The translations under genes and the position numbers were made by a program. Positions 15,306 to 32,637 of a stretch of 32,637 nt of DNA are shown here, piece after piece. The stretch is from a virus. The first letter of the stretch is position 1, and each line of letters begins with the position of its first letter. The notes under the pieces are model-generated. The model ran no database searches and was not told the DNA's origin. It saw only the letters and a program-made list of their open reading frames with translations. The stretch covers positions 1 to 32,637 of IMG/VR virus record IMGVR_UViG_3300027777_000087, one strand, 5' to 3'.

Positions 15306-17393
15306 TTACCAATTACTTACTGATGGCCCACCTGTGGGGGCAGGACGAGCACCACTTGCGGCAGGCTTGCGTTGGTTCGTCCTATAGCCTTGTTCCACAC
15401 TTCTATCTGATTCAGCTTCCATTCTTTTCTTCACGTCAGAGGGAGCGCGGTTGTACTCCCTATTGAGAAGTAACGCCTCTCTAGCTTTTATTTGTGCAGC
15501 TTGAATGTCTTTTGCACTGGTATTACCCAAACCTACTTCTGTCAACCCCGCTTTAGTTGGCCCAACGTCGCTAGTTTTCCATGCAGCCGCAGCTTCTATA
15601 GCTGCTTGTGCGGCGGCTTGTTTAGCGGGGTTTTTAGGGTCTAGCTTAGCAGCAAGTATCGCCGCGTTCAAAGCATCGTAACCTTTTGGTGCCCCACCAC
15701 CTCCGCCACCTGTAGACCGGTATGGTTTTGCAGCGGCGGCAACGGCGGCGGCAATCTGACCCTGTTTCAGCAGTACATCGACTCTTTCTTTGTCGCCTTC
15801 ACGCAGAGCTTTAGCCAATTCAGCTTCACGAGCAAGAGCTTCTTTGCCGAGGCCCATGCGTTCCTTACGGCGCTCGCTAGCAAGCTGGAATAAGCCTTCA
15901 GCAGAAGCACGCTTACGCGCTCTGGATTCTTTAAGGGTTTGCCCGTAGGATGAACCAGCAGCCCCAAGTGCATTACCAGCAGCCCTTGCAAAGTCATTCC
16001 CTTGGAGCAATGCCGCTGCGCCTTGCATTGCAGCTAGTCCTTTACCCTCGGACAACATATTTGCATCTTCGGTATCAAACCCTTTCAATGTCTTTTCATA
16101 GTCGGCATAAGGGTCAGGGCCACCCATTTCTTGGGCTTGCTTAAAGTAGGCTTCAGCATCAGCCGCTTGCTCTTCACGGCTGCGGCCTTTTGATGGTTGG
16201 AAGTTACTCAGTGCAGCGTTATACCCCAGTGCATTTTGCAGTGCTTGGCTGTACAGCGCAGGATTACCCGGAGCATAAGAACCCGGAACAGAACCACCAT
16301 CATCAAAAGCAACCACGCCGCCGTGAGCCATGTTGTAAGCACCGGCAAGTCCGCCCCGCTCAGAAGCACGGGTAGCAAGTTCAAGTTGCGCCGCTTGGAG
16401 CTCGGCTGCGCTAGAGGGACTCTGAATAATTTGCTTCAGTTGTTCATCGGTCAGCTTATCTACCGCATCGGCCATTTGGTTCTGGTCGTTCATCGCGTTG
16501 ATATCACCGCCCCCAGCATAGCTATCTACTTGCCCGCCATCAGCAAACATGCCCAACTGTTTTGCGCCATACGCGCCCATACCCAAAGCACCAATAGTCT
16601 GCAATGTTGACGGGGGAGCTTGATATATCTGCGCAGTGGACTGCTGACCCAACGGTAAGCCGCGAATCAAGTCAGACATAAAACCAATCTGCTTGTACGG
16701 GTAGTTCTGTTGATTCATAAAGTCTTGATACCCAATGTCTAGACCTTTTTGCGCTTGCGCTTGTTGCTGATTGCCGTATTGGTTCTGCAACTGATTGATA
16801 GCCACATCTTGGGTAATACCTTGACGGAACTGATTTGCAGCTTGGTCGTACGCAGCTTGGGAACCCTGCGCTTGAATTTGATTCATTTGCTGGCCAAGGT
16901 TGCGCTCACGTTCCGCACGCATGATGGCATCGCGGCCACCTCCAAAAGCACCGGCCTGAGCAGCTTGCGCTTGTTGTTGCGTACCCATGATTCCCGACTG
17001 CCGAGCAGCCTCTTGCTTTTGCACGTCCACCACATTCTGCATGTAGGGAGACATGTACGCGCTCATGTTTTGCTGGAACGCCTCTGGCCCAGCCGACATG
17101 TTTGAAGCCGCTGTTTGGGCTTGCTCTTGCATGGGGGCAAACCCAGCAAGCCGGGGTTGGGTGTAAGTCTGGTACGGATTTTTGTTGATGTCCGTCAGGT
17201 TGCCTGCGTTTGCCAGCGTATCTTTAGCGTAACCCTTAGCCCAGTCTGGAAGTTCAGTGGAACTTACTGTAGTGTTTTGGGGGGTAGAACTACCACCTCC
17301 ACCGCAAACTAAGCCGCCATCGGCCTTACGATACGTTGCGGAGTCCCCAAGGGGCTCACCCATTGCATATAGTTGCCGACGAGAGTAGCTCAT
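15306..17393 (-). CDS. Virion (internal/ejection-type) structural protein, 695 aa
   Basis: 695 aa. It begins MSYSRRQLYAMGEPLGD with a KADGGLVCGGGG patch and then TELPDWAKGYAKD and NPYQTYTQPRLAGFAPMQEQA, a start shared by many uncultured podovirus structural proteins. Residues about 95-245 are Gln/Ala-rich helices (QQQAQAAQAGAFGGGRDAIMRAERERN, QGSQAAYDQAANQFRQGI). The middle has Gly-rich boxes MFADGGQVDSYAGGG and MAHGGVVAFDDGGSVPG, then a charged helical C-terminal half. It has no enzymatic motif and no signal peptide. It lies between the GNAT gene (4-nt ATGA overlap) and the giant protein gene, a position typical of internal virion or ejection proteins (T7 gp14-gp16 region). The exact role is inferred from composition and context. 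Confidence 0.7.
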   Translation of the reverse strand: MSYSRRQLYAMGEPLGDSATYRKADGGLVCGGGGSSTPQNTTVSSTELPDWAKGYAKDTLANAGNLTDINKNPYQTYTQPRLAGFAPMQEQAQTAASNMSAGPEAFQQNMSAYMSPYMQNVVDVQKQEAARQSGIMGTQQQAQAAQAGAFGGGRDAIMRAERERNLGQQMNQIQAQGSQAAYDQAANQFRQGITQDVAINQLQNQYGNQQQAQAQKGLDIGYQDFMNQQNYPYKQIGFMSDLIRGLPLGQQSTAQIYQAPPSTLQTIGALGMGAYGAKQLGMFADGGQVDSYAGGGDINAMNDQNQMADAVDKLTDEQLKQIIQSPSSAAELQAAQLELATRASERGGLAGAYNMAHGGVVAFDDGGSVPGSYAPGNPALYSQALQNALGYNAALSNFQPSKGRSREEQAADAEAYFKQAQEMGGPDPYADYEKTLKGFDTEDANMLSEGKGLAAMQGAAALLQGNDFARAAGNALGAAGSSYGQTLKESRARKRASAEGLFQLASERRKERMGLGKEALAREAELAKALREGDKERVDVLLKQGQIAAAVAAAAKPYRSTGGGGGGAPKGYDALNAAILAAKLDPKNPAKQAAAQAAIEAAAAWKTSDVGPTKAGLTEVGLGNTSAKDIQAAQIKAREALLLNREYNRAPSDVKKRMEAESDRSVEQGYRTNQRKPAASGARPAPTGGPSVSNW

Positions 17394-17848
17394 ACCTTCT
17401 CCAGAATCTTTGTAAATAGCTTGTCAGTAAGCTTGTACCCGAGGTACTCAAACAGATGCGTGTTGTCCATGTGGATTTTCGTGTGCATGATTATCCTATG
17501 GATACCTTCTTTTTTAAGCACGTCTTCAGCAAACTGAAAAAGACGGATTCCTACTCGACCCTTGCGGTGTTCCTTCTTCAAGAAATAAATATCCTCAAAG
17601 GCAGTCATACACGACCGGTAGTGCAGGTGTGGGTGCACTATAAAAATCGCGTACCCAATCAGCTCATTATCCTCTCGAACCGTAATGCAGCGCAACATCC
17701 CAGCCACATGAAGCCGTCCGTACGCCTCGTAGTCGGGCATAAGCGGAAAGTCCTTGGTAACGCACAACTCATCATAGTGCTCAGGCAAGACTCCCTTTAA
17801 CGCCTCAATGAACTCGGCGGGGTCTTCGGTCTGATATGTTACCGTCAT
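17390..17848 (-). CDS. GNAT-family N-acetyltransferase
   Basis: 152 aa. A GNAT fold is visible: beta strands ITVREDNELIGYAIFIV (55-71), the acceptor-side strand FEDIYFL (84-90), and the acetyl-CoA-binding motif KEHRKGRVGIRLFQFAED (92-109; RKGRVG at 95-100 is the pyrophosphate loop), then IIMHTKIHMDNTHLFEYLGYK, the C-terminal motif B. It should transfer an acetyl group from acetyl-CoA to an amine. It overlaps both neighbours by 4 nt (ATGA) between two large virion proteins, so it is expressed late with them. Such enzymes in phage structural clusters may modify a virion or host protein; the substrate is unknown. Confidence 0.85.
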   Translation of the reverse strand: MTVTYQTEDPAEFIEALKGVLPEHYDELCVTKDFPLMPDYEAYGRLHVAGMLRCITVREDNELIGYAIFIVHPHLHYRSCMTAFEDIYFLKKEHRKGRVGIRLFQFAEDVLKKEGIHRIIMHTKIHMDNTHLFEYLGYKLTDKLFTKILEKV

Positions 17849-20800
17849 GCGGGCAAGTACTTGTCGGCGCGGCTATTCACCGCGACTTTGCCTTTACCTA
17901 CAGACTTCTTGCGCCCAGCTTGGATTCGGTCCATCATGGCGTACAGTTTACGTGCACCGGCCTCTGTAGAGCCATTGCCAATTTCGGAGACGATACGGGC
18001 GGGAATCACGAATTCACCGTCGGCCAACCGAGCAGGGCGTCCCTTACCAATAGTGGCTGGAATTGAATCGGACACACCATCACCGGGGCCCTTGAGCAAC
18101 CGGCCACCGTCCGAGTACGAACCTAGGTTGTAGGGGTCGGAAACACCGCCATCCGCATACATTTGTGGGGGATGAAAGCTGTATTTACCACTTTGAAAAA
18201 ACGGCTGGGGCGGGCGTAGATTACCGCGCACGTTACCACCACGGGCCATACGTTCTGAAATCATTCCACCGTGTGCAATACCGTTATAACCCTCACCTTG
18301 CTCGCCTTTATCGCCTAGCGGATTATCTCCACTGGTATCAGGTGAACCTTGAGGCCCTTCATCAGCACTTGGGGCTGGTGGTTCTGCTTCCGTTACTGGG
18401 GCTGGATACCGACTTAGTAAACTTTGTATTTCTCTAGTGTTTTCAGCCGCAATACCTTCCGGGGAAGCATTAAATGCATTTTCCGCTCTACCTTGGCTAG
18501 TCAATACAGGGCCTCCAAACTGGTCAGTAACATTTCGCCAAGCACTTCCAAGACCGCCAAAACTTGCAGAAACGCCCGCAAGCCCATGACCACCCGTAGC
18601 GGGTGCGCCAAAAGCGGGGTTATACCCCCCTTGAATTCCAGCATCAGAAACTATGCCGTTATTGAGGGCCGCATACTCCCCAAGTGAAGGCCCAATCATG
18701 GCCGCAAAAGTTTCGGCACTAGGTATTCCTAGTGTTTCAGGTTTTTTACCTATATCGGTATCAGCCTCTGCTTTAATTTCATTAATGCCCACAATATCGG
18801 GGGCAGCAAACATCCTATCTGCTTCGTCTGCGGCGCTATAAGGGGTTAATGCTTCGTTGGCTTTATTTACCTCTGCTTGATATGCTTCTGGGGATAAAAA
18901 CTGATTGCTAAAATTTACAGGCGCAAAACGGTCACCCCGCTCAAGGTTATTTATTGCATTTGCATTGTCTTCCGCCGTATACATCCCCAAAGGGTTTTCC
19001 TGTACAAACCTGTCACTGTATGGGCTATCTAATTTGTTAATCTGGTTTTGTAAAGAAGATATTTTGTCCGATAAAGCAAGCCCTGAGTCCCCCTCCACAA
19101 CGCTAGGGTCCGCATTAACTAAATTAACTGATTTTTGCAATTCGCGCTGTAAAGTAGCTTTTTCAAACTGTTTTTGTTCAGCAGCAGCAATTTGTGCTTT
19201 TGTCGCCCTTTCTGCTGCATCTTCAGCTTCAATCTGAGCAAACGGGTCTACGGGTTTATTCGCCTCTATTGCACGTTGTTGAGCAAGCCCTTGTAGTTTA
19301 TTTTGGTCTGCTAAGGCCATATTACCACCGGCTGTAGTCCCTGCTGGTATTGAATCCCCCGGAGCAAATAAATTACCATATCGGTCTCTAAAAAACGCTT
19401 TGTCAGTATAGGCAGTGCCAGCGGGGAAAAACCCTGCCGGTTGGGTAGAGGGGTCAGCGTATTTCCCTACTTGATTTAACGTAGGGTCGGAGCTAAAGAA
19501 CCCAGCAAATGGGTCGCCTTTTACTTGCCCGCTTGCTGGGGCTAAGCCGCTTTCAAGACTACGTAGTTCAGATCCCCGCAAAGGGTAACCAGAAACATCC
19601 GTACGCGAACTTAATGGGGCGTCAGCAAAATTACCGGAAGGGTAAGCAGCAGGAGTTTCAGGGTTATAACCGCTTGGGAGCCCCACCATGCCTACACTTT
19701 TGGGATTGCTAACATCAGGCCCCATAAATTCTTGGAACTTGTCGTAGGCAAATTTTAACGGGGAGGTAATAAGCCCTAGCGCATCTTGTGCTAAGGCCGT
19801 ATTAGGGTTTTCTAACCGCCATGCTTCTTTTTCCGCATCGCTCATTCCAGCCCATCGGGCGCTAAAGCTATTTGGGTCTTCGGGTTCACGATTACCACCA
19901 CCGCCACCACCATCGCCACCACGGGCATTAGCGCGCATTCTTGCGGCGTATTCTTCTGGAGTTTCCGCAGGGGGTGTAGCAGGAGCATATGAATTACCCC
20001 CAGACTTCCACCATTCGTACTTGTTGGTGGGTGAAGTTGCAGCAGCGCCTGAGTTAGCCACTCGTTGGAGGTACTCGGCAAAAAGTTGCTGCTGGTTGCG
20101 TGGCGCAGAAGTAATACCGCCGGTAGCCATGCGTGTAACGCCCCCCTCAGCAGCGTAGTAGGGGCGGTTGTAGGTCTGCTCTACACCTTGCATGTTGGGC
20201 TTGGGTAGTGGGTTGCTCCAGCCGGGGTAGTAGCTAAGTCCAGCCCTAGGTCCACGGTCAGTATCCGCAGCCTTTTGAGGTGTTTTGTTTTCGTCGGGGG
20301 CTATCGCGGCTAAGCCTACACCAAGAGACGTAAGTGGATTGGCCTTGATGTAGTTGATTGCGTTGGTTCCGCTGGCCCCAGCTTTGAGCGCATCAAAACG
20401 CTGCCCCATAGACATACTATCCAATGCCGCTGCTTGTTGGGCTGCTTGGGCCGCAGGGGTTGCCGCCGCCGCCGCTTGGGCTGCTTCTGCTGGTGCTGCG
20501 CTAGCAAGAGAAAGATATTCGGGTTTATTGGTGAAGCTGCTTAAGCTGCCTAAAGAAGAGCCAGCAGTCGAAGGCGTGGCAGCAGAAGCACCAGTAAGGG
20601 CATATGGAGATGTTGCGCCCGCAGGGGTCTCAAGTACCGTCGCAGGAGCCGCAACACCAGCATTCATAAAAGCCCCAGCCATACCCGCACCGCCGTACGC
20701 ACTGATACCCGCCATCATTCCCTTCTTTAGGTCTCCACCGTTAGTTGCAGCGGACGTAGCTCCAACAGCCAATGCCGCATAGCCAGCGGGTACACCCATA

Positions 20801-21012
20801 GCGGCTAATCCAGCGCCAGCGGCTATAGGTAGCAGAGCAGACAGGAACCCAGCTTCGGGAAGTCCAGTGTGGGGGTTGGTAGTCAGGGAACCGCCGTGCT
20901 GCTGAGCCAACGCTTGCAGACTTGCTACCTCTCCGGGGGTCATATGGACGAGCGTAGTGTCGGGCCCACGCCCATGAGCGGCTAGGTGTTTGGCAGCGAG
21001 TTGTATGCTCAT
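17845..21012 (-). CDS. Large virion structural protein, 1055 aa
   Basis: 1055 aa. The N-terminus (QLAAKHLAAHGRG, VHMTPGEVASLQALAQQHGGSLTTNPHTGLPEAGFL) and C-terminus (GPGDGVSDSIPATIGKGRPARLADGEFVIPARIVSEIGNGSTEAGARKLYAMMDRI, then NSRADKYLPA) are conserved-looking ends known from many uncultured tailed-phage virion proteins. After the N-terminus lies a hydrophobic glycine/alanine-rich stretch (about 55-125), possibly membrane-active. The middle is low complexity with AEGGVTRMATGG, DGGGGGGN, MARGGNVRG and MYADGGVSDP boxes. An AT-richer interior (about 18480-19600) differs from the ends. It is probably an internal or ejected virion protein, inferred from size, composition and position. AAGGA 6-7 nt upstream supports the ATG; the stop overlaps the GNAT start. 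Confidence 0.7.
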   Translation of the reverse strand: MSIQLAAKHLAAHGRGPDTTLVHMTPGEVASLQALAQQHGGSLTTNPHTGLPEAGFLSALLPIAAGAGLAAMGVPAGYAALAVGATSAATNGGDLKKGMMAGISAYGGAGMAGAFMNAGVAAPATVLETPAGATSPYALTGASAATPSTAGSSLGSLSSFTNKPEYLSLASAAPAEAAQAAAAATPAAQAAQQAAALDSMSMGQRFDALKAGASGTNAINYIKANPLTSLGVGLAAIAPDENKTPQKAADTDRGPRAGLSYYPGWSNPLPKPNMQGVEQTYNRPYYAAEGGVTRMATGGITSAPRNQQQLFAEYLQRVANSGAAATSPTNKYEWWKSGGNSYAPATPPAETPEEYAARMRANARGGDGGGGGGNREPEDPNSFSARWAGMSDAEKEAWRLENPNTALAQDALGLITSPLKFAYDKFQEFMGPDVSNPKSVGMVGLPSGYNPETPAAYPSGNFADAPLSSRTDVSGYPLRGSELRSLESGLAPASGQVKGDPFAGFFSSDPTLNQVGKYADPSTQPAGFFPAGTAYTDKAFFRDRYGNLFAPGDSIPAGTTAGGNMALADQNKLQGLAQQRAIEANKPVDPFAQIEAEDAAERATKAQIAAAEQKQFEKATLQRELQKSVNLVNADPSVVEGDSGLALSDKISSLQNQINKLDSPYSDRFVQENPLGMYTAEDNANAINNLERGDRFAPVNFSNQFLSPEAYQAEVNKANEALTPYSAADEADRMFAAPDIVGINEIKAEADTDIGKKPETLGIPSAETFAAMIGPSLGEYAALNNGIVSDAGIQGGYNPAFGAPATGGHGLAGVSASFGGLGSAWRNVTDQFGGPVLTSQGRAENAFNASPEGIAAENTREIQSLLSRYPAPVTEAEPPAPSADEGPQGSPDTSGDNPLGDKGEQGEGYNGIAHGGMISERMARGGNVRGNLRPPQPFFQSGKYSFHPPQMYADGGVSDPYNLGSYSDGGRLLKGPGDGVSDSIPATIGKGRPARLADGEFVIPARIVSEIGNGSTEAGARKLYAMMDRIQAGRKKSVGKGKVAVNSRADKYLPA

Positions 21013-21050
21013 AAAAAGTCCTTAGACGGCAGTATGTGCCATTGTATCTT

Positions 21051-21401
21051 TTAACCTATTTTCCAGTTGGTTCCGTCCGAGTAGACGGGGACTTTGTTAG
21101 CCCCACCTCCAGCTACGGTAGAAGCAAAAACAGCTAGGGTGGCATCCGATACAAAAGACCGTGCTCCAACCCCGGCAGTAGCTGCGCTGGGAAGGGTAGC
21201 TACCGTGTAAACGGTTGGAGTTGGGATGTACGTGGAAGCCGAACTAAACTGCCCCAGCAAGTTATCTACTTGGTTGAAGTACAACCGCAAGATGTTATTA
21301 AGCTGGTTGATGTAGTTGATGTCGTATTGCACAGTAGCCGCAGGCAAGCGCGGCGCAACTATCCGGTTAAGGGCTGTATCAGAAGTAACAATATAGGTCA
21401 T
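21051..21401 (-). CDS. Small virion/tail-fibre-associated protein
   Basis: 116 aa. Residues 1-50 are helical (QYDINYINQLNNILRLYFNQVDNLLGQF). The C-terminal part YTVATLPSAATAGVGARSFVSDATLAVFAS followed by a glycine-rich turn and KVPVYSDGTNWKIG is a beta module found at the ends of many phage fibre or appendage proteins. The helix probably trimerises or anchors it while the beta module is exposed. Its ATG overlaps the stop of the nozzle-like gene (ATGA), suggesting it works on the same tail structure. A 38-bp gap follows before the 1055-aa protein. Confidence 0.65.
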   Translation of the reverse strand: MTYIVTSDTALNRIVAPRLPAATVQYDINYINQLNNILRLYFNQVDNLLGQFSSASTYIPTPTVYTVATLPSAATAGVGARSFVSDATLAVFASTVAGGGANKVPVYSDGTNWKIG

Positions 21402-23509: not shown

Positions 23510-23517
23510 GGTGACGG

Positions 23518-23856: not shown

Positions 23857-24046
23857 ACAAACCCCTTTTTTGAACGATCAAATCAATGCACGTTGCGTCC
23901 ACTTTTGCGCCCAGCTTGATGTACTCTTGCTTCTTTTTCTCAGCCGCTTCCATGCACTGTTGCCTGTCGGTATAGTGGGAAAGCTGCTGCAAGAACTCGC
24001 AATGCCCATTCATGCAGATGTACAAGACGGGAATGAAGATGCTCAC
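23840..24046 (-). CDS. Small exported/membrane-anchored protein of lysis cassette
   Basis: 68 aa. The N-terminus MSIFIPVLYICMNGHCEF is hydrophobic and may act as a signal or membrane anchor. The rest is charged and helical (DRQQCMEAAEKKKQEYIKLGAK) and ends with VDATCIDL and a polar tail. Four cysteines suit the periplasm. It is wedged between the holin-like gene (ATGA overlap) and the endolysin gene (17-nt overlap), so a role in lysis, possibly spanin-like, is plausible, but it lacks a lipobox and no spanin signature was identified. Confidence 0.6.
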   Translation of the reverse strand: MSIFIPVLYICMNGHCEFLQQLSHYTDRQQCMEAAEKKKQEYIKLGAKVDATCIDLIVQKRGLYEFSS

Positions 24047-25022: not shown

Positions 25023-25180
25023 TTTCGGTTCACTACTACCCAGCGGCAGATGCGTCCGTCCTTATCTACAAACTCGTTTGTGCTTGGCTTGTCATCTTTC
25101 TTGGGAATGCGGCAGACCAACACCGTTTTTGTCTCGGTATTGGGCCACGGGCTGTCAGCAGATGCAAGCTGGTCAATCAC
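25019..25180 (-). CDS. Small 53-aa protein with GTG start
   Basis: The GTG at 25180 overlaps the stop of the tail-fibre gene (GTGA), and its own stop overlaps the next ATG (ATGA), so it exactly fills the gap. The product begins (V)IDQLASADSPWPNTETKTVLV, continues CRIPKKDDKPST and ends DGRICRWVVVNRK. It is basic at the C-terminus with two cysteines and no membrane segment. No clear Shine-Dalgarno sequence is present, so coupling would be needed. Function unknown. Confidence 0.55.
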   Translation of the reverse strand: MIDQLASADSPWPNTETKTVLVCRIPKKDDKPSTNEFVDKDGRICRWVVVNRK

Positions 25181-26583
25181 GGGTGGGCTGCTTTGTAAGC
25201 ATCAAATTCTGCTCTGAGTTCGTTGATGGCTGCAACAAGCAGTGGGATGGTATCGGTATAAGACATACCCAGCGTTCCCGTTTCTGGGTTCTGCACGTTG
25301 ACTGCTTCAGGCAGCACTGCTTGAACGTCTTGGGCAATTAAGAACGGGCGGCGGGTTTGCGTTGTGTCATTGTTGAAGTAGCCAATAACGGTGCGGAGCG
25401 TAGCAAGTTTTGCAGATGCATTTTCAATTGGCTCAACAATAGTCTTCATGCGCTCATCAGAAACAGAGTTCCAACTATTGCCGGTATTGGTTAAATAAAC
25501 TCCAGAAGTTCCAATAGTAGTACCCCCGGTGGTGATATAAAAATTGCTATCGCCACCGTCGCCAAATCCTATATTAACTTCAACTTGGGCGGTTTTAAAC
25601 ATGTAGATAGATAAGGGCGTACTTGCTGGTCCTACTATTTCAAGTTTTGATTCGCCCGACCTGTTTGCAACTGCGCCAATTAGTAACCGTCCGTTATGGC
25701 GACCACTGGTGTTCTGAAGTCGCATATCTTCCCTGTATGCGCTACTTGCATAACGGCTAAATGTTAAGTCGCCATCAGCCGAATTGCATCGCAATCCATA
25801 GCCGTCAGTTGCATTGCTTTGTTCTAGCTGAAGTTGGTATCCAGAAGTTCCTTGCTTAACCGTTACGTTAGCGCTTGCATTTGGCGAAGTAGTACCAACC
25901 CCCACTTTGCCGCCGTAAGGCTGAATTAGTAAATCCCCAGCAGACGAGCCGCCAGCACTCATCTGTATGTAAGGGAGGTCGCTGGGGCCAGAACCAAACT
26001 GCAATGAATACCCCGATGTGCTTTTTGGTATGATGTTGAAAGCCGCCAAAGAGTAAGCAGTTGCTAAAGATGATGCATTGCTTGTTCCACCAACAACGGC
26101 TAGCTTTGCAACAGGTGAAGCAGTTCCAACCCCCACGTTGCCGCTTGCATATAAGTCAGTAAACGCCCCCGCACCAGAGGTGTTGGCTACCTTTACAAAG
26201 TCTGTGCCGTTCCAAGCACACACGGCTTTTTCGCCTTGGACGATAGTTACCCCGGTGGTAGGGCCAACGCCGCGCAGCACGATGCTCTGAGTGCTGGAGC
26301 TTTTATTGATAACAACGTACACTTTGGACTGCGCTGGGGCTGTGATGTTACGGGTTACCGTGCCCCCTGCTGTCCACAAGATGATGGCTTCACGGGCTTC
26401 GTTGGCAGCACCGGTAGTTGTGGACAGCGTAATGTCTGCGTCTGTGCTGATTGTGGTTGTGCCTGAAACGGCAGAGTCCAGCAACGAGGTAATAGAGTTG
26501 TTAACCGTATCGCCCCACGTACCAGACAGTTCTCCAGTGACTGGGAGCGCCAGACCAAGTAGTGATGTATATGCAGTAGTCAT
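25177..26583 (-). CDS. Tail fibre with C-terminal S74 intramolecular chaperone
   Basis: 468 aa. Residues 1-140 form a head part common in phage fibres (LGLALPVTGELSGTWGDTVNNSIT, VYVVINKSSSTQSIVLRG, AVCAWNGTDFVKV). The shaft has GNVGVGTASPVAKLAVVGG and GKVGVGTTSPNASANVTV boxes typical of triple-beta-helix fibres. From 373, SVSDERMKTIVEPIENASAKL with Ser375/Lys380 and FLIAQDVQAVLPEAV match the peptidase S74 (endosialidase CIMCD) chaperone, which trimerises the fibre and then cuts itself off before the Ser. This is probably the receptor-binding fibre. GAGGT 7 nt upstream supports the ATG. A GTG-start gene follows by overlap. Confidence 0.88.
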   Translation of the reverse strand: MTTAYTSLLGLALPVTGELSGTWGDTVNNSITSLLDSAVSGTTTISTDADITLSTTTGAANEAREAIILWTAGGTVTRNITAPAQSKVYVVINKSSSTQSIVLRGVGPTTGVTIVQGEKAVCAWNGTDFVKVANTSGAGAFTDLYASGNVGVGTASPVAKLAVVGGTSNASSLATAYSLAAFNIIPKSTSGYSLQFGSGPSDLPYIQMSAGGSSAGDLLIQPYGGKVGVGTTSPNASANVTVKQGTSGYQLQLEQSNATDGYGLRCNSADGDLTFSRYASSAYREDMRLQNTSGRHNGRLLIGAVANRSGESKLEIVGPASTPLSIYMFKTAQVEVNIGFGDGGDSNFYITTGGTTIGTSGVYLTNTGNSWNSVSDERMKTIVEPIENASAKLATLRTVIGYFNNDTTQTRRPFLIAQDVQAVLPEAVNVQNPETGTLGMSYTDTIPLLVAAINELRAEFDAYKAAHP

Positions 26584-26591
26584 GTGTTACC

Positions 26592-27413
26592 TCAAGTTAC
26601 TATTTCCGTCCAATTAGCGGTTTGGGTACTGCTTATTGAGCCCCAGTTTGCTGTTTGTGAATTGCCTATATTTTGCCAGTTTGCAGTCTGCATGTCATCA
26701 ATCAACTTCCAGTAGACAGCGATAACAACACCGATATCTCCTTGTGCGTAATTGCCCGTCAAAACAAAACTTCTTGGCCCTAAACTGACCGTACCAACTG
26801 CGCCGCTGGCAGACCTGCCAGATAACGCAATAATTGTCTCAGGCCCAACTGTTCCAATGAAGCCCGCTGCTGTATCTGGCAACAACGGGACAATGACCTG
26901 ACCCAACGCCCCAACAGCCCCAACACCGGTCAAAGCCTCTGCGTTGGTTACTGCAACTGTTCCAACTGCCCCGCTGGCAGACTTGCCGCTCAAAGCAAAG
27001 GACGTATCCCTCGTTAGAGTTCCAACTGCGCCAGTAGCCACATCGCCGGTCAGGGCTACTGTTCTAGTAACGCCCAGCGTTCCTACGCTGCCTGTGGCTG
27101 CATTGCCTGCTAGGTCAAACGCTTTGCCCTGAGTAACCGTACCAACCGCGCCTGAAGCCGCCACGCCGCTCAGTGCAACCGTAATGACCGGGCCAACCGT
27201 ACCTACGAACCCGCTTGCAATGTCCCCCGTCTCTGCTGCGGACTGGCTTGGAGAGACTGTGCCTACCGAACCTGTTGCTGAATTGCCGGTGAGGGCAATC
27301 GTAATTCCCGGAGTCGCCGCTCCCACGGCCCCCGAGGCGGTATCTCCTGTTATCTGAAAAGCACCGCCCCAGCCGTTAGCGCCCCAAGTATCGTCGCCCC
27401 AGCCGAGAGACAC
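26592..27413 (-). CDS. Repeat-rich fibre-like virion protein
   Basis: 273 aa. After a Trp/Gly start (SLGWGDDTWGANGWGG), residues about 21-225 consist of about eleven repeats of roughly 20 aa with the pattern LTGxxATGxVGTVxxxxxxA. The C-terminus has three copies of QTANW (MQTANWQNI, SQTANWGSI, TQTANWTEI). Repeating short beta units suggest a beta-helix or fibrous shaft, probably part of a fibre or virion surface decoration. It lies directly upstream of the S74 fibre in transcription. Repeat number may vary between relatives. No catalytic motif. Confidence 0.7.
   Translation of the reverse strand: MSLGWGDDTWGANGWGGAFQITGDTASGAVGAATPGITIALTGNSATGSVGTVSPSQSAAETGDIASGFVGTVGPVITVALSGVAASGAVGTVTQGKAFDLAGNAATGSVGTLGVTRTVALTGDVATGAVGTLTRDTSFALSGKSASGAVGTVAVTNAEALTGVGAVGALGQVIVPLLPDTAAGFIGTVGPETIIALSGRSASGAVGTVSLGPRSFVLTGNYAQGDIGVVIAVYWKLIDDMQTANWQNIGNSQTANWGSISSTQTANWTEIVT
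26738..27353 (-). repeat. About eleven tandem 60-bp coding repeats
   Basis: The DNA for the GxxAxGxVGTV units repeats with a period of about 60 bp (57-63 bp), diverged but in frame. Copies around 26800-26825 and 26960-26990 share CCGCTGGCAGAC. They code the fibre-like repeats and are not CRISPR, since the whole unit is translated. Confidence 0.8.
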
Positions 27414-27422
27414 AGCCTATCC

Positions 27423-27908
27423 TTACGTTGTAGCCAACCGCAGCAAGCCAGTAGTCGTAGTATTGGAAGGCATAGTCAGTGTGAATGTGCCCGCCGTGAT
27501 GGTCTGGTCACCAAACGTGTAAACGGCCACAGCCTTGTTGCTCTGCGTGGAGTTGTAGACCAAGACCGCGTTGAACGCTGTAGTGATAGTCAGTGCAGTC
27601 CAAGAGAAACTTGCCGTAGGAGTCCAGTACGCCACACCGGCAGTCGCCGAACTGTTTGTCGCAATCGGAGCCGTACCGTTGGTCACCGTGACACCGCCAG
27701 CCGTGTATCCAGAGCCGGACGTATTGGTCACTTCACCAGTGGTGGAGTACGCGGTAGTGGCTGCATTAACGGTTGCAGAGGTGAAGTAAAGCGCAGCTTT
27801 AAACGTATCGGCAGTGGTAGCCGCACGAATAGGAGCCACACCAAAATTGTGCGTTCCAGTCATCAGTTCCCCCATGAAGGAGGTACACATTGAAGCAGTA
27901 TTTGCCAT
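27423..27908 (-). CDS. Small structural protein, paralogue of the gene at 28103-28519
   Basis: 161 aa, beta-rich and Thr/Ala-rich. Core patterns: ADTFKAALYFTSATVNAATTAYSTTGEV, SGYTAGGVTVTNG, SFSWTALTITTAFNAVLVYNSTQSNKAVAVYTFG and FTLTMPSNTTTTGLLRL. The same series occurs in the 138-aa protein two genes upstream, with shared residues at TTxYSTTxEV, SGYTAGGxT, IxxYNxTQxNKxIAV and FTxTMPxNT, so they are paralogues. This copy has an extra N-terminal stretch (MANTASMCTSFMGELMTGTHNFGV). Probably a virion surface or tail component; function inferred from location. AAGGA upstream supports the start. Confidence 0.7.
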   Translation of the reverse strand: MANTASMCTSFMGELMTGTHNFGVAPIRAATTADTFKAALYFTSATVNAATTAYSTTGEVTNTSGSGYTAGGVTVTNGTAPIATNSSATAGVAYWTPTASFSWTALTITTAFNAVLVYNSTQSNKAVAVYTFGDQTITAGTFTLTMPSNTTTTGLLRLATT

Positions 27909-27917
27909 GATTAGTCC

Positions 27918-28106
27918 TTAAAAAGTACCGGTTTCGCCGCCAAATGCGGGCATTTTCTTCAGCGTCACATGCACAGACCGGTGAACCAATTCACCATCTA
28001 GCCAGTATTCCGTCCACGTAGTCGCTTCATTGTCGTTGTCCACCGTGCCGGTACGGTGTTCCAACAGGGAATCATCCATGTCGCCTTTGGTCGTAGTGAC
28101 AATCAA
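27918..28106 (-). CDS. 62-aa protein with TTG start between the paralogues
   Basis: TTG at 28106 overlaps the stop of the preceding gene (TTGA). AGGAG lies 6 nt before it, which settles the start. The product (M)IVTTTKGDMDDSLLEHRTGTVDNDNEATTWTEY followed by WLDGELVHRSVHVTLKK is an all-beta-like small protein commonly found next to these structural proteins. Function unknown; a virion-assembly role is possible given the two flanking paralogues. Confidence 0.65.
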   Translation of the reverse strand: MIVTTTKGDMDDSLLEHRTGTVDNDNEATTWTEYWLDGELVHRSVHVTLKKMPAFGGETGTF

Positions 28107-28519
28107 TTTGAACTCCTGATAAGTGCGGTTGTGGAAGTGTTGGCAGGCATGGTGATTGTAAAGGTCGTGGTTGAGGTTTTGTCTGCCCCAAAGTCAATCA
28201 CTGCAATGGATTTGTTGCCTTGCGTCACGTTGTAAATCAATGCACACCGGGCGGTGATTGCTGCTGTCCAAGCTGTGTTTGCCCAGTTTACATAGGCCGT
28301 GTAGCCAGAAGAATTGATAGCTACCCCAGTCAGCGTATTGCCGCCCGCTGTATAGCCAGACGCTACAACTTCATTGGTGGTTGAGTAGACCGTGGTATCC
28401 GCATTCAGATTAGCATTGCCTGTGTACAGCGCAATCTTGAGGGTATCAGTAGCCAAGTTGTGGACGGCCTGATACAACTCCTTCTTGAAGCTGGTAGTCT
28501 GCGTTTGAACAATGCTCAT
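28103..28519 (-). CDS. Small structural protein, paralogue of 27423-27908
   Basis: 138 aa. TSFKKELYQAVHNLATDTLKIALYTGNANLNADTTVYSTTNEV is followed by ASGYTAGGNTLTGVAINSSG, AITARCALIYNVTQGNKSIAVIDFG and TFTITMPANTSTTALIRS. The pattern recurs in the downstream paralogue. It starts by ATGA overlap with the adaptor gene. Beta-rich, without signal peptide or enzyme motif; likely a virion component. Paralogy with the downstream gene is clear by eye, the virion role is inferred from context. Confidence 0.7.
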   Translation of the reverse strand: MSIVQTQTTSFKKELYQAVHNLATDTLKIALYTGNANLNADTTVYSTTNEVVASGYTAGGNTLTGVAINSSGYTAYVNWANTAWTAAITARCALIYNVTQGNKSIAVIDFGADKTSTTTFTITMPANTSTTALIRSSN

Positions 28520-29211
28520 GTTACCGCCTGCCTATACTGACCGCTGCGATACGCATCTTGCCGTTCCAGACCATCGCCCAGACGTTTAGCCAGTGCAAGG
28601 GCTTCCTTGTACTTGCCTTCATACAACGCAATCAGGTCGGGCTCACCCTTCATAAAGGTGTATGCCTCTACCAACGACCCATACAGCAGCACCGTATCAA
28701 AGTTGTCGCCCAGCCAAGTCGTAGAAGCAGTGACAATAGACGCAGGGTAATAGTAATAGTGCAGTTCAGCGGAGTAGGTTGCGTCAGGTGTTGGGCCAAG
28801 GATGAACGACAACTCGTTGCTGATAGTCGAGCCTGATACTGTCGGGCCAAACAAGGCGTAGTACTTGGGCGTTCCGGTGTCAGTCGGCGTAGGGTATGCC
28901 TCACGCATAAAGTTCACATCCTTATTGAGCAAGAACGTGTACGGGCCGGAACCAGAAAAGATAGCCAAGGAATACGAAGACAAGAAGTCGTCGGGGCAGG
29001 ACAGGTATTTATTACCGGATGTGATTGTCCCCGTCACGTTCTTACGTAAGAAGGGGAACTGTACCGAGTTGTATATACGCTGCTCTGCTTGCTGGATGAA
29101 ACGGTTAATCTGAGCCGTAGACGAGACCGTAGACGAATCCGCAAGGGTAATCGTCGGAAAGTTGTTTTCCGTGTAGGTCTGTATCGCCGATACAAGCTCA
29201 GAGTAGTTCAT
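28516..29211 (-). CDS. Head-tail adaptor-like structural protein
   Basis: 231 aa. N-terminal helix LVSAIQTYTENNFP and INRFIQQAEQRIYNSVQFPFLRKNVTGTIT, then beta strands (KYLSCPDDFLSSYSLAIF, YYALFGPTVSG, LSFILGPTPDATYSAELHYYYYPASI) and the C-terminal helices TVLLYGSLVEAYTFMKGEPDLIALYEGKYKEALALAKRLGDG. This helix-beta-helix layout matches the tail tubular A / P22 gp4-type adaptor group that connects portal and nozzle. It overlaps the preceding gene by 4 nt and the following by 4 nt (ATGA). Role inferred from fold pattern and position. Confidence 0.65.
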   Translation of the reverse strand: MNYSELVSAIQTYTENNFPTITLADSSTVSSTAQINRFIQQAEQRIYNSVQFPFLRKNVTGTITSGNKYLSCPDDFLSSYSLAIFSGSGPYTFLLNKDVNFMREAYPTPTDTGTPKYYALFGPTVSGSTISNELSFILGPTPDATYSAELHYYYYPASIVTASTTWLGDNFDTVLLYGSLVEAYTFMKGEPDLIALYEGKYKEALALAKRLGDGLERQDAYRSGQYRQAVT

Positions 29212-29471
29212 GCCATCGGGCCCCTTGCCATCAGGCCTTTGGTAGCTGCGCCAGTTCCCCGTACTTTGATGCCATCGGTTTTGGTGGGCTCGTTACCAGC
29301 AGATTTGCTCAACCCACCAAGGCTAACGTCCAAACTGTCCAGCTTGCTTTTGTTGGGTTCTTTACCGGGGCTTGCAGCAATCTTCATCGCCTTGCCATCC
29401 ATCGTGTGCGGAGCCGCGTAGACGCTGGCTTGGCCAACTTCTTTGCCGCCTTTTTTCATACTGTATGCCAT
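29208..29471 (-). CDS. Small Gly/Lys-rich virion-type protein
   Basis: 87 aa. It begins MAYSMKKGGKEVGQASVYAAPHTMDGKAMK and ends KTDGIKVRGTGAATKGLMARGPMA. The ending (TDGIKxRGTGAATKGxxARGPMA) is a recognisable conserved tail of small proteins in uncultured podoviruses. The protein is basic, flexible, without membrane segments. It sits with several similarly composed genes (29475-29672 and 31000-32582). Function unknown; virion association is likely. Confidence 0.6.
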   Translation of the reverse strand: MAYSMKKGGKEVGQASVYAAPHTMDGKAMKIAASPGKEPNKSKLDSLDVSLGGLSKSAGNEPTKTDGIKVRGTGAATKGLMARGPMA

Positions 29472-29474
29472 GAT

Positions 29475-29672
29475 TTACCCCGTTTTCTGGCTAGCTGCAC
29501 GAGACAGATTACGACCAAGACGCATACGGTCATCCGTAGTGGGCCCACCTTTTTTCAACTTCAACGAAGTGCCCTTGCCGCCCTTATGCTCTTGCGCATC
29601 GTGCTGCTTGAACGCCTTCTTAATCATGGCCTTGTCTTGCGCCATATCACTTTTCATGCCTTCTTTAGCCAT
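29475..29672 (-). CDS. Small basic KKGG protein
   Basis: 65-66 aa. Two consecutive ATGs (29675 and 29672); AGGAG at 29679-29683 is 3 nt from the first and 6 nt from the second, so the second is preferred. The product MAKEGMKSDMAQDKAMIKKAFKQHDAQEHKGG continues with LKLKKGGPTTDDRMRLGRNLSRAASQKTG, helical and strongly charged, the second half with a KKGG box. Such short Lys/Gly proteins recur in this region and are probably virion- or assembly-associated. No known enzyme motif. Confidence 0.6.
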   Translation of the reverse strand: MAKEGMKSDMAQDKAMIKKAFKQHDAQEHKGGKGTSLKLKKGGPTTDDRMRLGRNLSRAASQKTG

Positions 29673-29681
29673 CATGGACTC

Positions 29682-30071
29682 CTATGAAACCGTTACTGTT
29701 ACCGTGCCAACACTCGTGGTTCCGACCAAGTAGTTGGGTGTCAGACCCACATCAAAATTACTAGCTCCGCCAATCGGATTCCATCCCCACTGGATGTCTC
29801 TACTACCCCCACCGGGGTATCCCAACGTATCCAACCCAGAAGCTACATAGCTGCGGTCGGGGCGCGGATTACGTAAAGCCTGTGGGTCATCTACAGGAAA
29901 CATACCTAGCTGTAGTTGCGGTTGGTCAGGGTCCCAACATGCTGGGCATACTAGCAGATTGTAGTTCTTCGTCTTGATAATTTCTGTGCGCAGAACCTTC
30001 AACTTAAACCGCTGACCGCAGCGGTCACATTCGGAGATTGCATTCTTGCCAGAAGCAAATCTATTACCCAT
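29682..30071 (-). CDS. Zinc-ribbon-like structural protein
   Basis: 129 aa. Residues 15-46 contain CDRCGQRFK and, after a gap, VCPACWD: two C-x2-C pairs forming a zinc ribbon. The next part (PQLQLGMFPVDDPQALRNPRPDRSY) is a conserved-looking stretch in many podovirus small proteins, followed by a Gly-rich tail with YLVGTTSVGTVTVTVS. It sits between the 308-aa structural protein and the small KKGG proteins. It may contact DNA or another virion protein; function not established. Confidence 0.65.
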   Translation of the reverse strand: MGNRFASGKNAISECDRCGQRFKLKVLRTEIIKTKNYNLLVCPACWDPDQPQLQLGMFPVDDPQALRNPRPDRSYVASGLDTLGYPGGGSRDIQWGWNPIGGASNFDVGLTPNYLVGTTSVGTVTVTVS

Positions 30072-30073
30072 GA

Positions 30074-31000
30074 CTACCGCCCAATATAGGTCTGACGCGG
30101 CACCAAACGCAGGGCCGCTTTCTCATGGTCTTCATAGGCTGCAAGTTCCCAAGCCTCGTCATACTGGGCCTTCAGCATAGGTATGCGCTCCATGCCTGTA
30201 GGAATTTTGCCCGCGATGTGAAACGCTAGCCCTGCTGCCATGCAGGGGATAAACCGGAATGGTACGTCCATGATGTTCACGCCACCGCCAGCATCTTGGG
30301 TACGGCGCAGACGCCAGTAAGCCAGTGTGTATGTTTGCGCGTTGTCAGGTGTAGGCCAGACGGTCACGGCGGGAAGCTGTTGCCAGTAGACGGTAGCCCC
30401 AGAAGTGTGCGCCGCAGCGATGGTATTGTTCTGCGCACGAAAACAGCTATACAGGGTATTCCCTGATATGTAGCCGTAGTTGATGGTCTCTGAGTCAATC
30501 TTAATAAACCCAGAAGCAGGCAGGCCCACTGTGGAGCTAAGGGTAATCTGGGTATCCGTGCTCGTGATTGTGCTAGCTAAGGTCAACCCCACTACCGAAG
30601 TCTGGCCGTTGTACCGTTGAATCCAAATCTGGATAGGCCGCGCTTGGGTCAGCTTGTTAGGGATAGTGGCGTAGGTAGAAACACTGATGCGGGTAATGGT
30701 CAGGTCGGCCTGATTGGAAGTGCTGTTGGCATCCGTGCGGATTAGGTGCTCCAGCAAATCAATCGTATCGTCAGGCAGGGGGTAGGTGTTCTGCCCTTGC
30801 ACCAACTGAATTGTGCCCGGCTCAATCGTCCACAGGTTAATGCCTCGGTTAGCCCAGTCGGCAAACATGATGTTGAGGCTGCGCCGCGCTGTGCGCAGGT
30901 CATAGCCCGTACGTAGTTCGCTTCCAGCCCGCTCAAAAGCCTCCTCGACCAACTCGGTGAGGTCGAGGTTAAAAGCTGTGGAGCCGGAGGTATTTGCCAT
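30074..31000 (-). CDS. P22 gp4-like structural protein with inserted beta domain
   Basis: 308 aa. The N-terminal part DLTELVEEAFERAGSELRTGYDLRTARRSLNIMFADWANRGINLWTIEPGTIQL and PLPDDTIDLLEH, plus the C-terminal WPTPDNAQTYTLAYWRLRRTQDAGG, DVPFRFIPCMAAGLAFHIA and YDEAWELAAYEDHEKAALRLVPR, match adaptor or accessory proteins of podoviruses. Between IWIQRYNGQ and the WPTP strand lies an insert (about 140-208): LTLASTITSTDTQITLSSTVGLPASGFIKIDSETINYGYISGN ending AAAHTSGATVYW, a beta module frequent in fibres. It starts at the TAATG overlap with a 58-aa gene. Neck function is inferred. Confidence 0.65.
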   Translation of the reverse strand: MANTSGSTAFNLDLTELVEEAFERAGSELRTGYDLRTARRSLNIMFADWANRGINLWTIEPGTIQLVQGQNTYPLPDDTIDLLEHLIRTDANSTSNQADLTITRISVSTYATIPNKLTQARPIQIWIQRYNGQTSVVGLTLASTITSTDTQITLSSTVGLPASGFIKIDSETINYGYISGNTLYSCFRAQNNTIAAAHTSGATVYWQQLPAVTVWPTPDNAQTYTLAYWRLRRTQDAGGGVNIMDVPFRFIPCMAAGLAFHIAGKIPTGMERIPMLKAQYDEAWELAAYEDHEKAALRLVPRQTYIGR

Positions 31001-31176
31001 TATTTCTTCAGACCTTTAAGGGTTTCAGCCAGACGGGCACGTTGACCCATCTTGCCGGGAGCTTTTGCAGCCTTAGCAAGCTTTTTAGCGGGGATAGGCT
31101 TATCGCCCTTCACACCAAGCGATGCACGCAGTGCACCGGGCTTTTTAATTGCTTTCTGAATCCACTTCTCGGCCAT
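31000..31176 (-). CDS. 58-aa basic protein (gene e)
   Basis: ATG at 31176 overlaps the preceding stop (TAATG), with GAGGT 7 nt before it; its stop TAA (31000-31002) overlaps the next ATG likewise. It starts MAEKWIQKAIKKPGALRASL and continues GVKGDKPIPAKKLAKAAK, APGKMGQRARLAETLKGLKK. Such KKPGALRxSLGVK...KMGQRARLAETL proteins are common in uncultured phages; function unknown. Strongly basic, probably helical; it could bind nucleic acid or the virion. Confidence 0.75.
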   Translation of the reverse strand: MAEKWIQKAIKKPGALRASLGVKGDKPIPAKKLAKAAKAPGKMGQRARLAETLKGLKK

Positions 31177-31409
31177 TATCTGTACCTCGCTGTTTTACTT
31201 GCAATGCTCTTGGGCTGGGCTACGAACTGTTTACCTGCTGCTTTACCCGCACGTTTGGCTTTGGTGGTTGCAGCGTACTCGGATGGGGACAAGGACTTTA
31301 TAGCAGCTTCAGGGAGGTATCGCTCACCTGTTTTTGACGATGGCTTTCCCGACTTAGTGCGCCATTTCTGGTCACCCCAAGCTTTGAGGGATTGCTGCGG
31401 TGCTTTCAA
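31176..31409 (-). CDS. 77-aa basic protein with TTG start (gene d)
   Basis: TTG at 31409 with GGAGG 10 nt upstream; no in-frame ATG follows, so TTG is the start. The previous gene's stop overlaps it (TTGA). The product (M)KAPQQSLKAWGDQKWRTKSGKPSSKTGERYLPEAAIK continues with LSPSEYAATTKAKRAGKAAGKQFVAQPKSIASKTARYR, and resembles small basic proteins with the KW-x-TKSGKPS-x-x-TGERYLP signature known from phages and large viruses. Function unknown; no signal or membrane segment. Confidence 0.7.
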   Translation of the reverse strand: MKAPQQSLKAWGDQKWRTKSGKPSSKTGERYLPEAAIKSLSPSEYAATTKAKRAGKAAGKQFVAQPKSIASKTARYR

Positions 31410-31762
31410 TCTCTGTACCCTCCGCCTGCTTTCTTGTAGCGTTGTGCCACCATCTGAGCCTTACGGGCCGACCATTGCCCTGCGCCCGTGCCTGCTGTAG
31501 CTTCTGCCTTCACAGCATTAAAGATGCGCTTACGCAGTCCGGGCTTGGTATAGTTTCCCGCAGCATTCACTTTGGATTCCCCACCAGCAGCCATTTTCTT
31601 GGGCTTCTTGCCCGCTGTTTTCATAGCAATAGCGGTGGCTGCTTGTTGTGCTAACCCACCACTTTTGTACTCGGCAAAGTCGGTGTTATCCCGACGCGCT
31701 TTCTTCTTCGCGCCGGGCATCTTGGATGGGTTGATATCGCCCATGCCGCGAGAAGCAATCAT
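31406..31762 (-). CDS. 118-aa basic protein with SKVNAAGNYTKP domain (gene c)
   Basis: Starts MIASRGMGDINPSKMPGAKKKARRD right after the TAA of the previous gene. Residues about 54-118 (KPKKMAAGGESKVNAAGNYTKPGLRKRIFNAVKAEATAG, then GQWSARKAQMVAQRYKKAGGGYRD) form a conserved-looking basic module common in phage small proteins. KKMAAGG resembles the KKMASGG boxes of the next two genes. The ribosome-binding site is weak (GGAAAG). Likely virion- or DNA-associated; function unknown. Confidence 0.7.
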   Translation of the reverse strand: MIASRGMGDINPSKMPGAKKKARRDNTDFAEYKSGGLAQQAATAIAMKTAGKKPKKMAAGGESKVNAAGNYTKPGLRKRIFNAVKAEATAGTGAGQWSARKAQMVAQRYKKAGGGYRD

Positions 31763-32323
31763 TTAGCACATCTTTCCACGGGTTTTACCCTTAGATGCAA
31801 TGCCGTCCGCACGACTAGAAGCAGAACCACCAGAAGCCATCTTCTTGACCGTACCACCTTTTTTCATGCCGGACGATAGTGCAGCATTATCGCGGGCTAT
31901 ACGGGCTTGCCTATCGGCTAGCATGTTTTTTATACCATCAAAATCCCCTCTGGCTCTTACGGTTTTAGCGTAGTCAGTGTCACCGATAGACATAGAACCT
32001 TGGTTTTCTTTCTTAGCAGGAGCGGTGTTTTTAGCTGAGCTACTACCGGGGCCCATTTGACTACCAGCATACGGAGTTGCGCTTGGCCCTGCTTTTGCAG
32101 CCATTTGGGTTTTTGCAGGGGTAGCAGCAGGAGCGGAGCCATCTCGACGCTTCAGTCCCAACTGCTTGTTCATGTAGTCACGCAAGCTAAGGCCCGAGGC
32201 ATCTAGCTCTTCTTTAGTGACTTTAAGACGGCTTTGGTCGGGATGTTTAGGGGCAGCAACAGTTTTTTCTTCGCTGTCAACCACATCACCGTCAGCATAT
32301 CGTTTCATCATTTTAGTTGCCAT
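31763..32323 (-). CDS. 186-aa Ala/Lys-rich protein with KGG tail (gene b)
   Basis: ATG at 32323 preceded by AAGGAG at 7 nt; an earlier in-frame ATG (32422) would run 33 aa through the preceding gene and is rejected. Begins MATKMMKRYADGDVVDSEEKTV, has SGLSLRDYMNKQLGLKRRDGS, a Pro/Ala/Lys low-complexity middle, and DTDYAKTVRARGDFDGIKNMLADRQARIARDNAAL. It ends KKGGTVKKMASGGSASSRA, DGIASKGKTRGKMC. That ending is nearly identical to the tail of the next gene upstream. Flexible, basic, probably virion-associated. Confidence 0.7.
   Translation of the reverse strand: MATKMMKRYADGDVVDSEEKTVAAPKHPDQSRLKVTKEELDASGLSLRDYMNKQLGLKRRDGSAPAATPAKTQMAAKAGPSATPYAGSQMGPGSSSAKNTAPAKKENQGSMSIGDTDYAKTVRARGDFDGIKNMLADRQARIARDNAALSSGMKKGGTVKKMASGGSASSRADGIASKGKTRGKMC
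31809..31846 (-). repeat. 38-bp exact repeat, copy in gene b
   Basis: Identical over 38 bp to 32401-32438. It encodes the KKMASGGSASSRA segment in the C-terminal tail of gene b. Confidence 0.9.
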
Positions 32324-32333
32324 GATTTTCTCC

Positions 32334-32582
32334 TTAGCAGGCCATGCCGCCCTTGTTGAGCATTTTGCCTTTGGTCTTGCCCTTAGAAGCAATACCATCA
32401 GCACGACTAGAAGCAGAACCACCAGAAGCCATCTTCTTAGTAGCGCCGCCTTTTTTCATCATCATTTGCTTTTTGTCCAGCGCCATGTCGGCTTTGGAGC
32501 CTTCTTTCATTCCTTTTTTCTCTTTGTCTTTACCAGACTTTTCAAATTTAGCCATGAGGGCTGCGGGCATTTTAGAGGCCAT
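32334..32582 (-). CDS. 82-aa basic protein with KGG tail (gene a)
   Basis: ATG at 32582, with AGGTGG 7 nt before it; an alternative in-frame ATG at 32612 (MELFKKGGNT-) has a poorer ribosome-binding site, and that frame stays open to the right edge. Begins MASKMPAALMAKFEKSGKDK, then charged helices (KKGMKEGSKADMALDKKQMMMKKGG) and the tail ATKKMASGGSASSRADGIASKGKTKGKM shared with the next gene. Flexible basic protein; probable small virion component. Function unknown. Confidence 0.7.
   Translation of the reverse strand: MASKMPAALMAKFEKSGKDKEKKGMKEGSKADMALDKKQMMMKKGGATKKMASGGSASSRADGIASKGKTKGKMLNKGGMAC
32401..32438 (-). repeat. 38-bp exact repeat, copy in gene a
   Basis: Identical over 38 bp to 31809-31846, 592 bp away, coding the same KKMASGGSASSRA tail segment in gene a. 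The shared peptide extends beyond the identical DNA, so the tail was probably duplicated and then diverged at both ends. Confidence 0.9.
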
Positions 32583-32637
32583 AGTGTTTCCACCTTTCTT
32601 AAATAGTTCCATTTTGCCTTGTCGAGTTTCAGGCTTG

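What the first reader, a model, noticed from the sequence alone, without database searches (positions are those of the whole stretch)
15306..32582. Recurring (A/M)-x-GG / KKGG peptide module across many late proteins
ADGG/AGGG/AHGG/ARGG boxes occur in the 695- and 1055-aa proteins (MFADGGQVDS, MYADGGVSDP, MARGGNVRG, MATGGITS, MAHGGVVAF), with KKGG, KKMASGG, KKMAAGG and YADGDVV in the small proteins. One peptide style repeated in at least seven proteins of one operon suggests a common role: a shared binding partner, a processing or sorting tag, or DNA/capsid contact. I know of no described function.
Basis: partly seen in the sequence, partly recalled or inferred. Interest (0 to 1): 0.6.

Follow-up and report, generated by a model that had tools for sequence, protein, structure and literature searches.

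The report
Shared C-terminal tag on phage head-block proteins
A lineage of uncultivated freshwater phages ends many otherwise unrelated small proteins, all encoded beside the capsid gene, with the same 16-residue tail, which most likely acts as an address label that gets them built into the virus particle, although no experiment shows this yet.

Summary
(1) In the small Lys/Gly-rich proteins the KKGG/KKMASGG boxes lead into a C-terminal tag, [KR]K[MY]A.GG..SAS.RADG[ICV]A.[KR]GKT[KR]G[KR]xx-COOH. The tag sits on at least 92 BLAST-unrelated bodies in uncultivated, mostly freshwater phages. Codons vary freely, so selection acts on the protein. Of 202 tags on contigs holding both landmark genes, 193 lie between the major capsid gene and an SU10-type neck adaptor gene, and 9 lie just after the adaptor. 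All 35 MCP-selected contigs with a complete interval carry some form of it. Conversely, 20 of 21 tag-selected contigs with enough upstream sequence carry the same capsid lineage. (2) In the 1055-aa protein the boxes precede a tape-measure-type C-terminal module. (3) In the 695-aa protein they form a conserved MA.GG[IV]VAF box. I found no published description of the tag; the library covers open-licence papers only. Best explanation, by analogy with T4 internal proteins and encapsulin cargo peptides: a virion-incorporation tag on hypervariable basic cargo proteins (confidence 0.45). No virion proteomics or binding data were available; the partner is unknown.

The parts
32334..32637 (-). 3' part of a tagged gene (92-aa ORF from 32612; true gene continues beyond window edge; relatives begin with an MPxTSKKQxxFM helical domain)
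   Evidence: last 25 nt encode KPETRQGK as in relatives; A2 alignment; AF2 folds residues 1-37 of a relative at pLDDT 84-93, tag region 40-50
32361..32405 (-). tag copy 1: RADGIASKGKTKGKM (preceded by KKGGATKKMASGGSASS, 32406-32456)
31763..32323 (-). tagged gene 2 (about 186 aa; N-terminal KRYADGD box, C-terminal tag)
32279..32305 (-). N-terminal box KRYADGDVV (35 tagged proteins matched a KR[YF]-x-GG-like N-terminus)
31766..31813 (-). tag copy 2: RADGIASKGKTRGKMC-COOH (preceded by MKKGGTVKKMASGGSASS, 31814-31867)
31406..31762 (-). 118-aa conserved block protein; boxes YKSGG and KKMAAGG before the phrog_17747 domain (31409-31567)
31176..31409 (-). 77-aa basic conserved block protein (phrog_14910), no box
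31000..31176 (-). 58-aa basic protein (phrog_20603-like), no box
30074..31000 (-). SU10-type adaptor (308 aa), distal landmark of the tagged interval
   Evidence: Pfam PF24175
29475..29675 (-). 66-aa protein, KKGG box; homologues elsewhere carry or are fused to the RADG tag
29208..29471 (-). 87-aa protein with MKKGG N-terminus and conserved KTDGIKVRGTGAATKGLMARGPMA C-terminus (29211-29282), possibly related to the tag
17848..18162 (-). 1055-aa protein C-terminal module MYADGG...YSDGGRLLKGPGDGVSDSIPA...; tape-measure-type
16293..16454 (-). 695-aa protein LTDEQL...MAHGGVVAFDDGG element, conserved across relatives
16506..16550 (-). 695-aa protein MFADGGQVDSYAGGG boxes

Best explanation
The core of the finding is a short, probably disordered C-terminal tag shared by otherwise unrelated small basic proteins encoded between the major capsid gene and the neck adaptor. 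Most likely it is a virion-incorporation signal. A common head component, perhaps the capsid protein or scaffold of this lineage, would bind the tag and draw a hypervariable set of cargo proteins into the procapsid, as the capsid targeting sequence does for T4 internal proteins. The GG boxes would then be flexible junctions between body and tag. Shown here: the tag's sequence conservation, body diversity, protein-level selection, strict gene location, mutual linkage with one capsid lineage, and a low-confidence (likely disordered) AF2 prediction for the tag. Inferred: binding to the head, packaging, possible ejection with the DNA, and the partner. The boxes in the 695- and 1055-aa proteins are separate conserved elements of ejection or tape-measure-like proteins.
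For: 363 distinct tagged proteins; 244 end exactly 5 residues after GKT. 92-96 BLAST-unrelated body clusters, 67 of 92 singletons. Conserved tag residues use different codons (within genomes 501 same, 497 synonymous). 60 hits vs 0 for a reversed-pattern control. 192+1 (circular) of 202 tags lie between MCP and adaptor, 9 just after the adaptor, none elsewhere. 35/35 MCP-selected intervals hold a strict, broad or minimal tag; 27 strict, 29 broad. 20/21 tag-selected contigs with upstream sequence have this MCP lineage. All 378 tagged proteins have pI above 9, median length 137. The commonest N-terminal domain matches the N-terminus of two PHROGs labelled virion structural. T4 precedent: highly diverse internal proteins with only a conserved CTS (PMC3012670). 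Encapsulin precedent: about 10-residue C-terminal cargo peptide binding the luminal surface of the shell (PMC7355545).
Against: No virion proteomics or binding data were found for any tagged phage. T4 CTS is N-terminal and removed by protease (own knowledge); no Peptidase_S78 was found here. Linkage with the MCP may be shared descent of a gene block, not interaction. Within-genome tags are only slightly more alike than between genomes (82 vs 78%). The strongly basic tag could bind DNA instead.
Confidence: 0.45

Rival explanations
1. The tag is a nucleic-acid-binding tail: a Lys/Arg/Gly peptide on small basic proteins that condense or coat the packaged DNA, with no specific protein partner.
For: All tagged proteins have pI >9 and bodies are mostly basic; the tag itself is rich in K/R; the tag region is predicted disordered.
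Against: Near-invariant RADG.A..GKT.G and fixed distance to the C-terminus exceed what charge alone requires; position-dependent Cys pattern; about 6% of bodies are acidic yet carry it.
Confidence: 0.2
2. The tag docks proteins onto the neck or portal (adaptor, 129-aa Zn-ribbon-like protein) rather than the head shell; tagged proteins would be neck-associated.
For: Genes abut the adaptor; 9 tags lie between adaptor and Zn protein.
Against: Often 2-5 diverse, largely disordered proteins per contig fit bulk cargo better than a symmetric neck; 193/202 are on the head side.
Confidence: 0.12
3. The tag is a recombination relic: a conserved 3' end through which bodies are swapped, kept by gene conversion and family expansion, without a shared binding function.
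For: Bodies are shuffled modularly; in the window the two copies share 38 identical nt over KKMASGGSASSRA; within-genome codon identity is slightly raised (49 vs 43%).
Against: Codon choice is otherwise free while residues are fixed, including the most invariant RADG-GKT part, so selection acts on the protein.
Confidence: 0.13
4. The GG boxes are protease sites (A-x-GG cut, adenovirus-protease-like) that release a basic C-terminal peptide.
For: A-x-GG lies just before the conserved tail; adenovirus protease cuts after x-GG and releases basic core peptides (own knowledge, a lead only).
Against: No Peptidase_S78 in 15 tagged genomes (the C48 search was uninformative); no protease among the Pfam families shown for one proteome except M15, the lysis type (first 25 of 39 families shown).
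Confidence: 0.05
5. Low-complexity Gly/Lys/Ala composition makes the boxes by chance.
For: KKGG counts in the 66- and 87-aa proteins are near expectation.
Against: Shuffle tests for the 695-, 1055- and 118-aa proteins; positional conservation; tag pattern 60 vs 0 control.
Confidence: 0.02

Closest known systems
T4 capsid targeting sequence (CTS) on internal proteins
   Same: One short conserved tag on a highly diverse set of phage late proteins, encapsidated through it (PMC3012670).
   Different: CTS is N-terminal and cleaved during maturation (own knowledge); no sequence comparison was made; packaging is not shown here.
Encapsulin cargo loading peptide
   Same: Short C-terminal peptide conserved across different cargo genes encoded next to the shell gene (PMC7355545).
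   Different: Different host structure (a cellular nanocompartment); binding to the phage shell is not tested.
Tape-measure module YA.GG.L.GPG.G.SDS..A...GEF (8zdo gp16)
   Same: Resembles the 1055-aa C-terminal boxes and module, occurring twice in gp16.
   Different: Weak match; explains only the 1055-aa boxes, not the RADG tag.
phiKZ PHIKZ165.1 / phrog_16759
   Same: 65% identical over 43 residues to a consensus I wrote for the MPxTSKKQxxFM N-terminal domain of tagged proteins.
   Different: Stand-alone 58-aa protein without the tag.
Planktothrix phage Pag-Yong1 UMO75986.1 / MinM2 MM2_5
   Same: Divergent tag RDGCAKRGRTKGRFI on a 308-aa protein between minor capsid and adaptor.
   Different: GRT instead of GKT; weak BLAST score (E about 1), so identified by position and eye.

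Membership tests
T4-type CTS/internal protein system | one conserved short tag on unrelated cargo proteins | tested here: met
T4-type CTS/internal protein system | tag at the N-terminus | tested here: not met
   tag is C-terminal
T4-type CTS/internal protein system | prohead protease removes the tag | tested here: inconclusive
   no Peptidase_S78 in 15 genomes; T4 gp21-type (S77) and other protease families not searched
T4-type CTS/internal protein system | tagged proteins are inside virions | not testable with these tools
   no proteomics of a tagged phage found; PHIKZ165.1 not found in papers
Encapsulin cargo peptide | conserved C-terminal peptide, cargo gene near the shell gene | tested here: met
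Encapsulin cargo peptide | peptide binds the luminal face of the shell protein | not testable with these tools
   no binding data; no solved structure matched the MCP by sequence
Walker A P-loop NTPase | G-x4-GK[ST] | tested here: met
   DG[ICV]A.[KR]GKT in nearly all strict tags
Walker A P-loop NTPase | pattern strictly kept and set in a P-loop fold | tested here: not met
   GRT, GLT and VKT variants occur; tag predicted disordered
Tape-measure C-terminal module (1055-aa protein only) | GG box followed by GPG.G.SDS.PA and GEF(V/I) | tested here: met
   E=0.0055 for the whole chain, weak per domain
Adenovirus-type GG cleavage | cognate cysteine protease encoded by the virus | tested here: inconclusive
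   no C48 match but controls silent

The most novel reading that the evidence does not exclude
A widespread uncultivated phage lineage uses one C-terminal peptide as a general capsid address, so that any body fused to it becomes virion cargo. The tag may hold one functionally needed cysteine in either of two alternative places (RADG-C or the C-terminus), suggesting thiol or metal contact with a conserved partner.
Probability: 0.3. Interest if true: 0.85.

Novelty: new variant of a known kind. Interest (0 to 1): 0.6.

Why it matters
If it is a cargo tag, any protein ending in it can be called as virion cargo from sequence alone. That would give a list of candidate injected or structural proteins for a common group of freshwater phages with almost no isolates, and a portable tag for loading proteins into a phage head.

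Tried and rejected
Chance or low complexity: rejected for the main boxes. DNA-level element: rejected by free codon use, though a 38-nt identical tract in the window hints at local gene conversion. Walker A NTPase: pattern fits but variants and disorder argue against. Known family: no Pfam, NCBIfam, PHROG or PDB annotation of the tag itself was found. Literature: no paper holds RADGIA or RGKTRG in a relevant sense, and none names Pag-Yong1 or PHIKZ165.1. Cellular origin: in 84,980 genomes the tag appears on only five contigs, all from MAGs or uncultured bins, one of them (L348) probably chimeric. Structure of the 1055-aa C-terminal module: AF2 mean pLDDT only 57, so the Foldseek result is not used. 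Coevolution of tags within genomes: effect too small to identify a partner. PHROG and Pfam scans of 92 bodies gave scattered families of unknown function and no clear enzyme or anti-defence domain.

Full report
WHAT THE WINDOW IS. The window is a 32,637-base virus record, probably a fragment. Late genes run on the minus strand. Its neck, tail and ejection genes resemble SU10-adaptor-type phages: two proteins hit Pfam SU10_adaptor, the 703-aa protein hits phrog_3287, the 695-aa protein weakly hits a 'DNA ejection protein' (E=1.4e-6), and the 2541-aa protein is DarB-like. No near DNA relative is in the phage collection.

CHECK OF THE OBSERVATION. All quoted peptides are present in seven proteins. 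Shuffle tests give [YFMK]A.GG 4 vs 0.20 expected (695-aa), 3 vs 0.26 (1055-aa), 2 vs 0.11 (118-aa); 219-aa is marginal, 92-aa not significant, and plain KKGG in the 66- and 87-aa proteins is near expectation. Tests were per protein, not corrected for the five patterns tried.

THE TAG. The 92- and 219-aa ORFs end in nearly the same tail. Relatives show it as a C-terminal tag: in 158 distinct tails RADG, which the search pattern required, is followed by an almost invariant GKT. In the enlarged set of 363 distinct proteins, 244 end exactly five residues after GKT. Bodies fall into 96 or 92 (other filters) BLAST clusters, most of them singletons; the largest cluster is a single-linkage chain. Conserved residues are encoded by different codons about half the time, so the protein is under selection. 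The DNA pattern gave 60 hits against 0 for its reversed control in 30 records; those records were chosen for carrying tags, so only the control speaks to specificity. In 84,980 genomes the tag appears on only five contigs, all from MAGs or uncultured bins.

WHERE IT SITS. On contigs with both MCP and adaptor, 192 of 202 tags lie between them, 1 more does on a contig that appears to wrap round, and 9 lie after the adaptor; in the whole genomes and loci read in detail these sit before the next neck gene. Many of these loci overlap or are related, so the counts are not independent. To avoid selecting on the tag, I took contigs by MCP: 35 had a complete interval, 27 with a strict tag and 29 with a broader one. 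I then read the intervals of five of the untagged ones, saw variants, and wrote a minimal core after that reading; it was found in 33, and the two it missed have strict tags, so 35/35 hold some form. Because that core was fitted to these sequences, 27/35 or 29/35 is the conservative figure. In the other direction, 20 of 21 tag-selected contigs with at least 6 kb upstream carry this MCP lineage (75-95% identical where found), and 52 of 52 with 4 kb downstream carry the adaptor, 77- or 118-aa gene.

WHAT THE TAGGED PROTEINS LOOK LIKE. They are small (median 137 aa) and all have pI above 9. AF2 of a full-length relative folds residues 1-37 (pLDDT about 84-93) and leaves the tag at 40-50. The N-terminal domain is 65% identical over 43 residues to phiKZ PHIKZ165.1, encoded near structural genes, and matches the N-terminus of two 'virion structural' PHROGs. 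Modules are shuffled: the 66-aa domain occurs alone, with the tag, or fused behind the N-terminal domain.

CYSTEINE. Cysteine is 5.2% of tag residues and 0.14% of body residues. Cys after RADG and Cys later in the tag rarely co-occur (16-mers: both 4, first only 71, second only 34, neither 46; Fisher p=5e-8). Relatedness was not corrected for, and the pattern was noticed in the same data, so this is a lead.

THE LARGE PROTEINS. In 47 aligned 1055-aa C-termini the glycines of both boxes are invariant. All 81 proteins collected by the GPGDG.SD pattern have a box within 35 residues upstream. The module resembles a unit found twice in tape-measure protein gp16 of 8zdo (weak). In the 695-aa family the box is MA.GG[IV]VAF after an L[ST]D[EQ]QL segment; the regular expression that collected the 19 sequences required a GG box, so the evidence there is the shared surrounding sequence. 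No tag was found on these proteins.

MECHANISM. I favour a virion-incorporation tag by analogy with T4 internal proteins (PMC3012670) and encapsulin cargo peptides (PMC7355545). Sequence, location, diversity and lineage linkage are shown; packaging, partner and ejection are inferred. A DNA-binding tail is the main rival.

Noticed in passing
tags in L098-L457: Cys at RADG-C and Cys near the C-terminus are nearly mutually exclusive, in bodies with almost no Cys.
   Followed up: partly
window 7668-15293: 2541-aa DarB-like protein also holds an HEALGH metalloprotease-like motif (read from sequence).
   Followed up: no
window 26592-27413: 273-aa protein built of a repeated TG..A.GAVGTV-like unit (read from sequence).
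   Followed up: no
window 29211-29282: 87-aa family ends in its own conserved tail KTDGIK.RGTGAATKG.MARGPMA, perhaps related to the tag.
   Followed up: partly
N-termini of tagged proteins, e.g. L101 12119-12592, L128 4841-5344, L215 2155-2481: A further short N-terminal style, LEGGG(A)G, in 11 tagged proteins.
   Followed up: no
OQ594354, OL906435, PP438419: Three 65,014-bp records giving identical match statistics are deposited with three different cyanobacterial hosts.
   Followed up: no
L348 162-2003: Tag appears fused to an acyltransferase-like ORF near a contig edge in a Patulibacter MAG; probably a chimeric assembly.
   Followed up: no
G001 and relatives: MCP is more conserved (83-95%) than terminase or portal among tagged genomes; a GroES-like gene follows the portal.
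   Followed up: no
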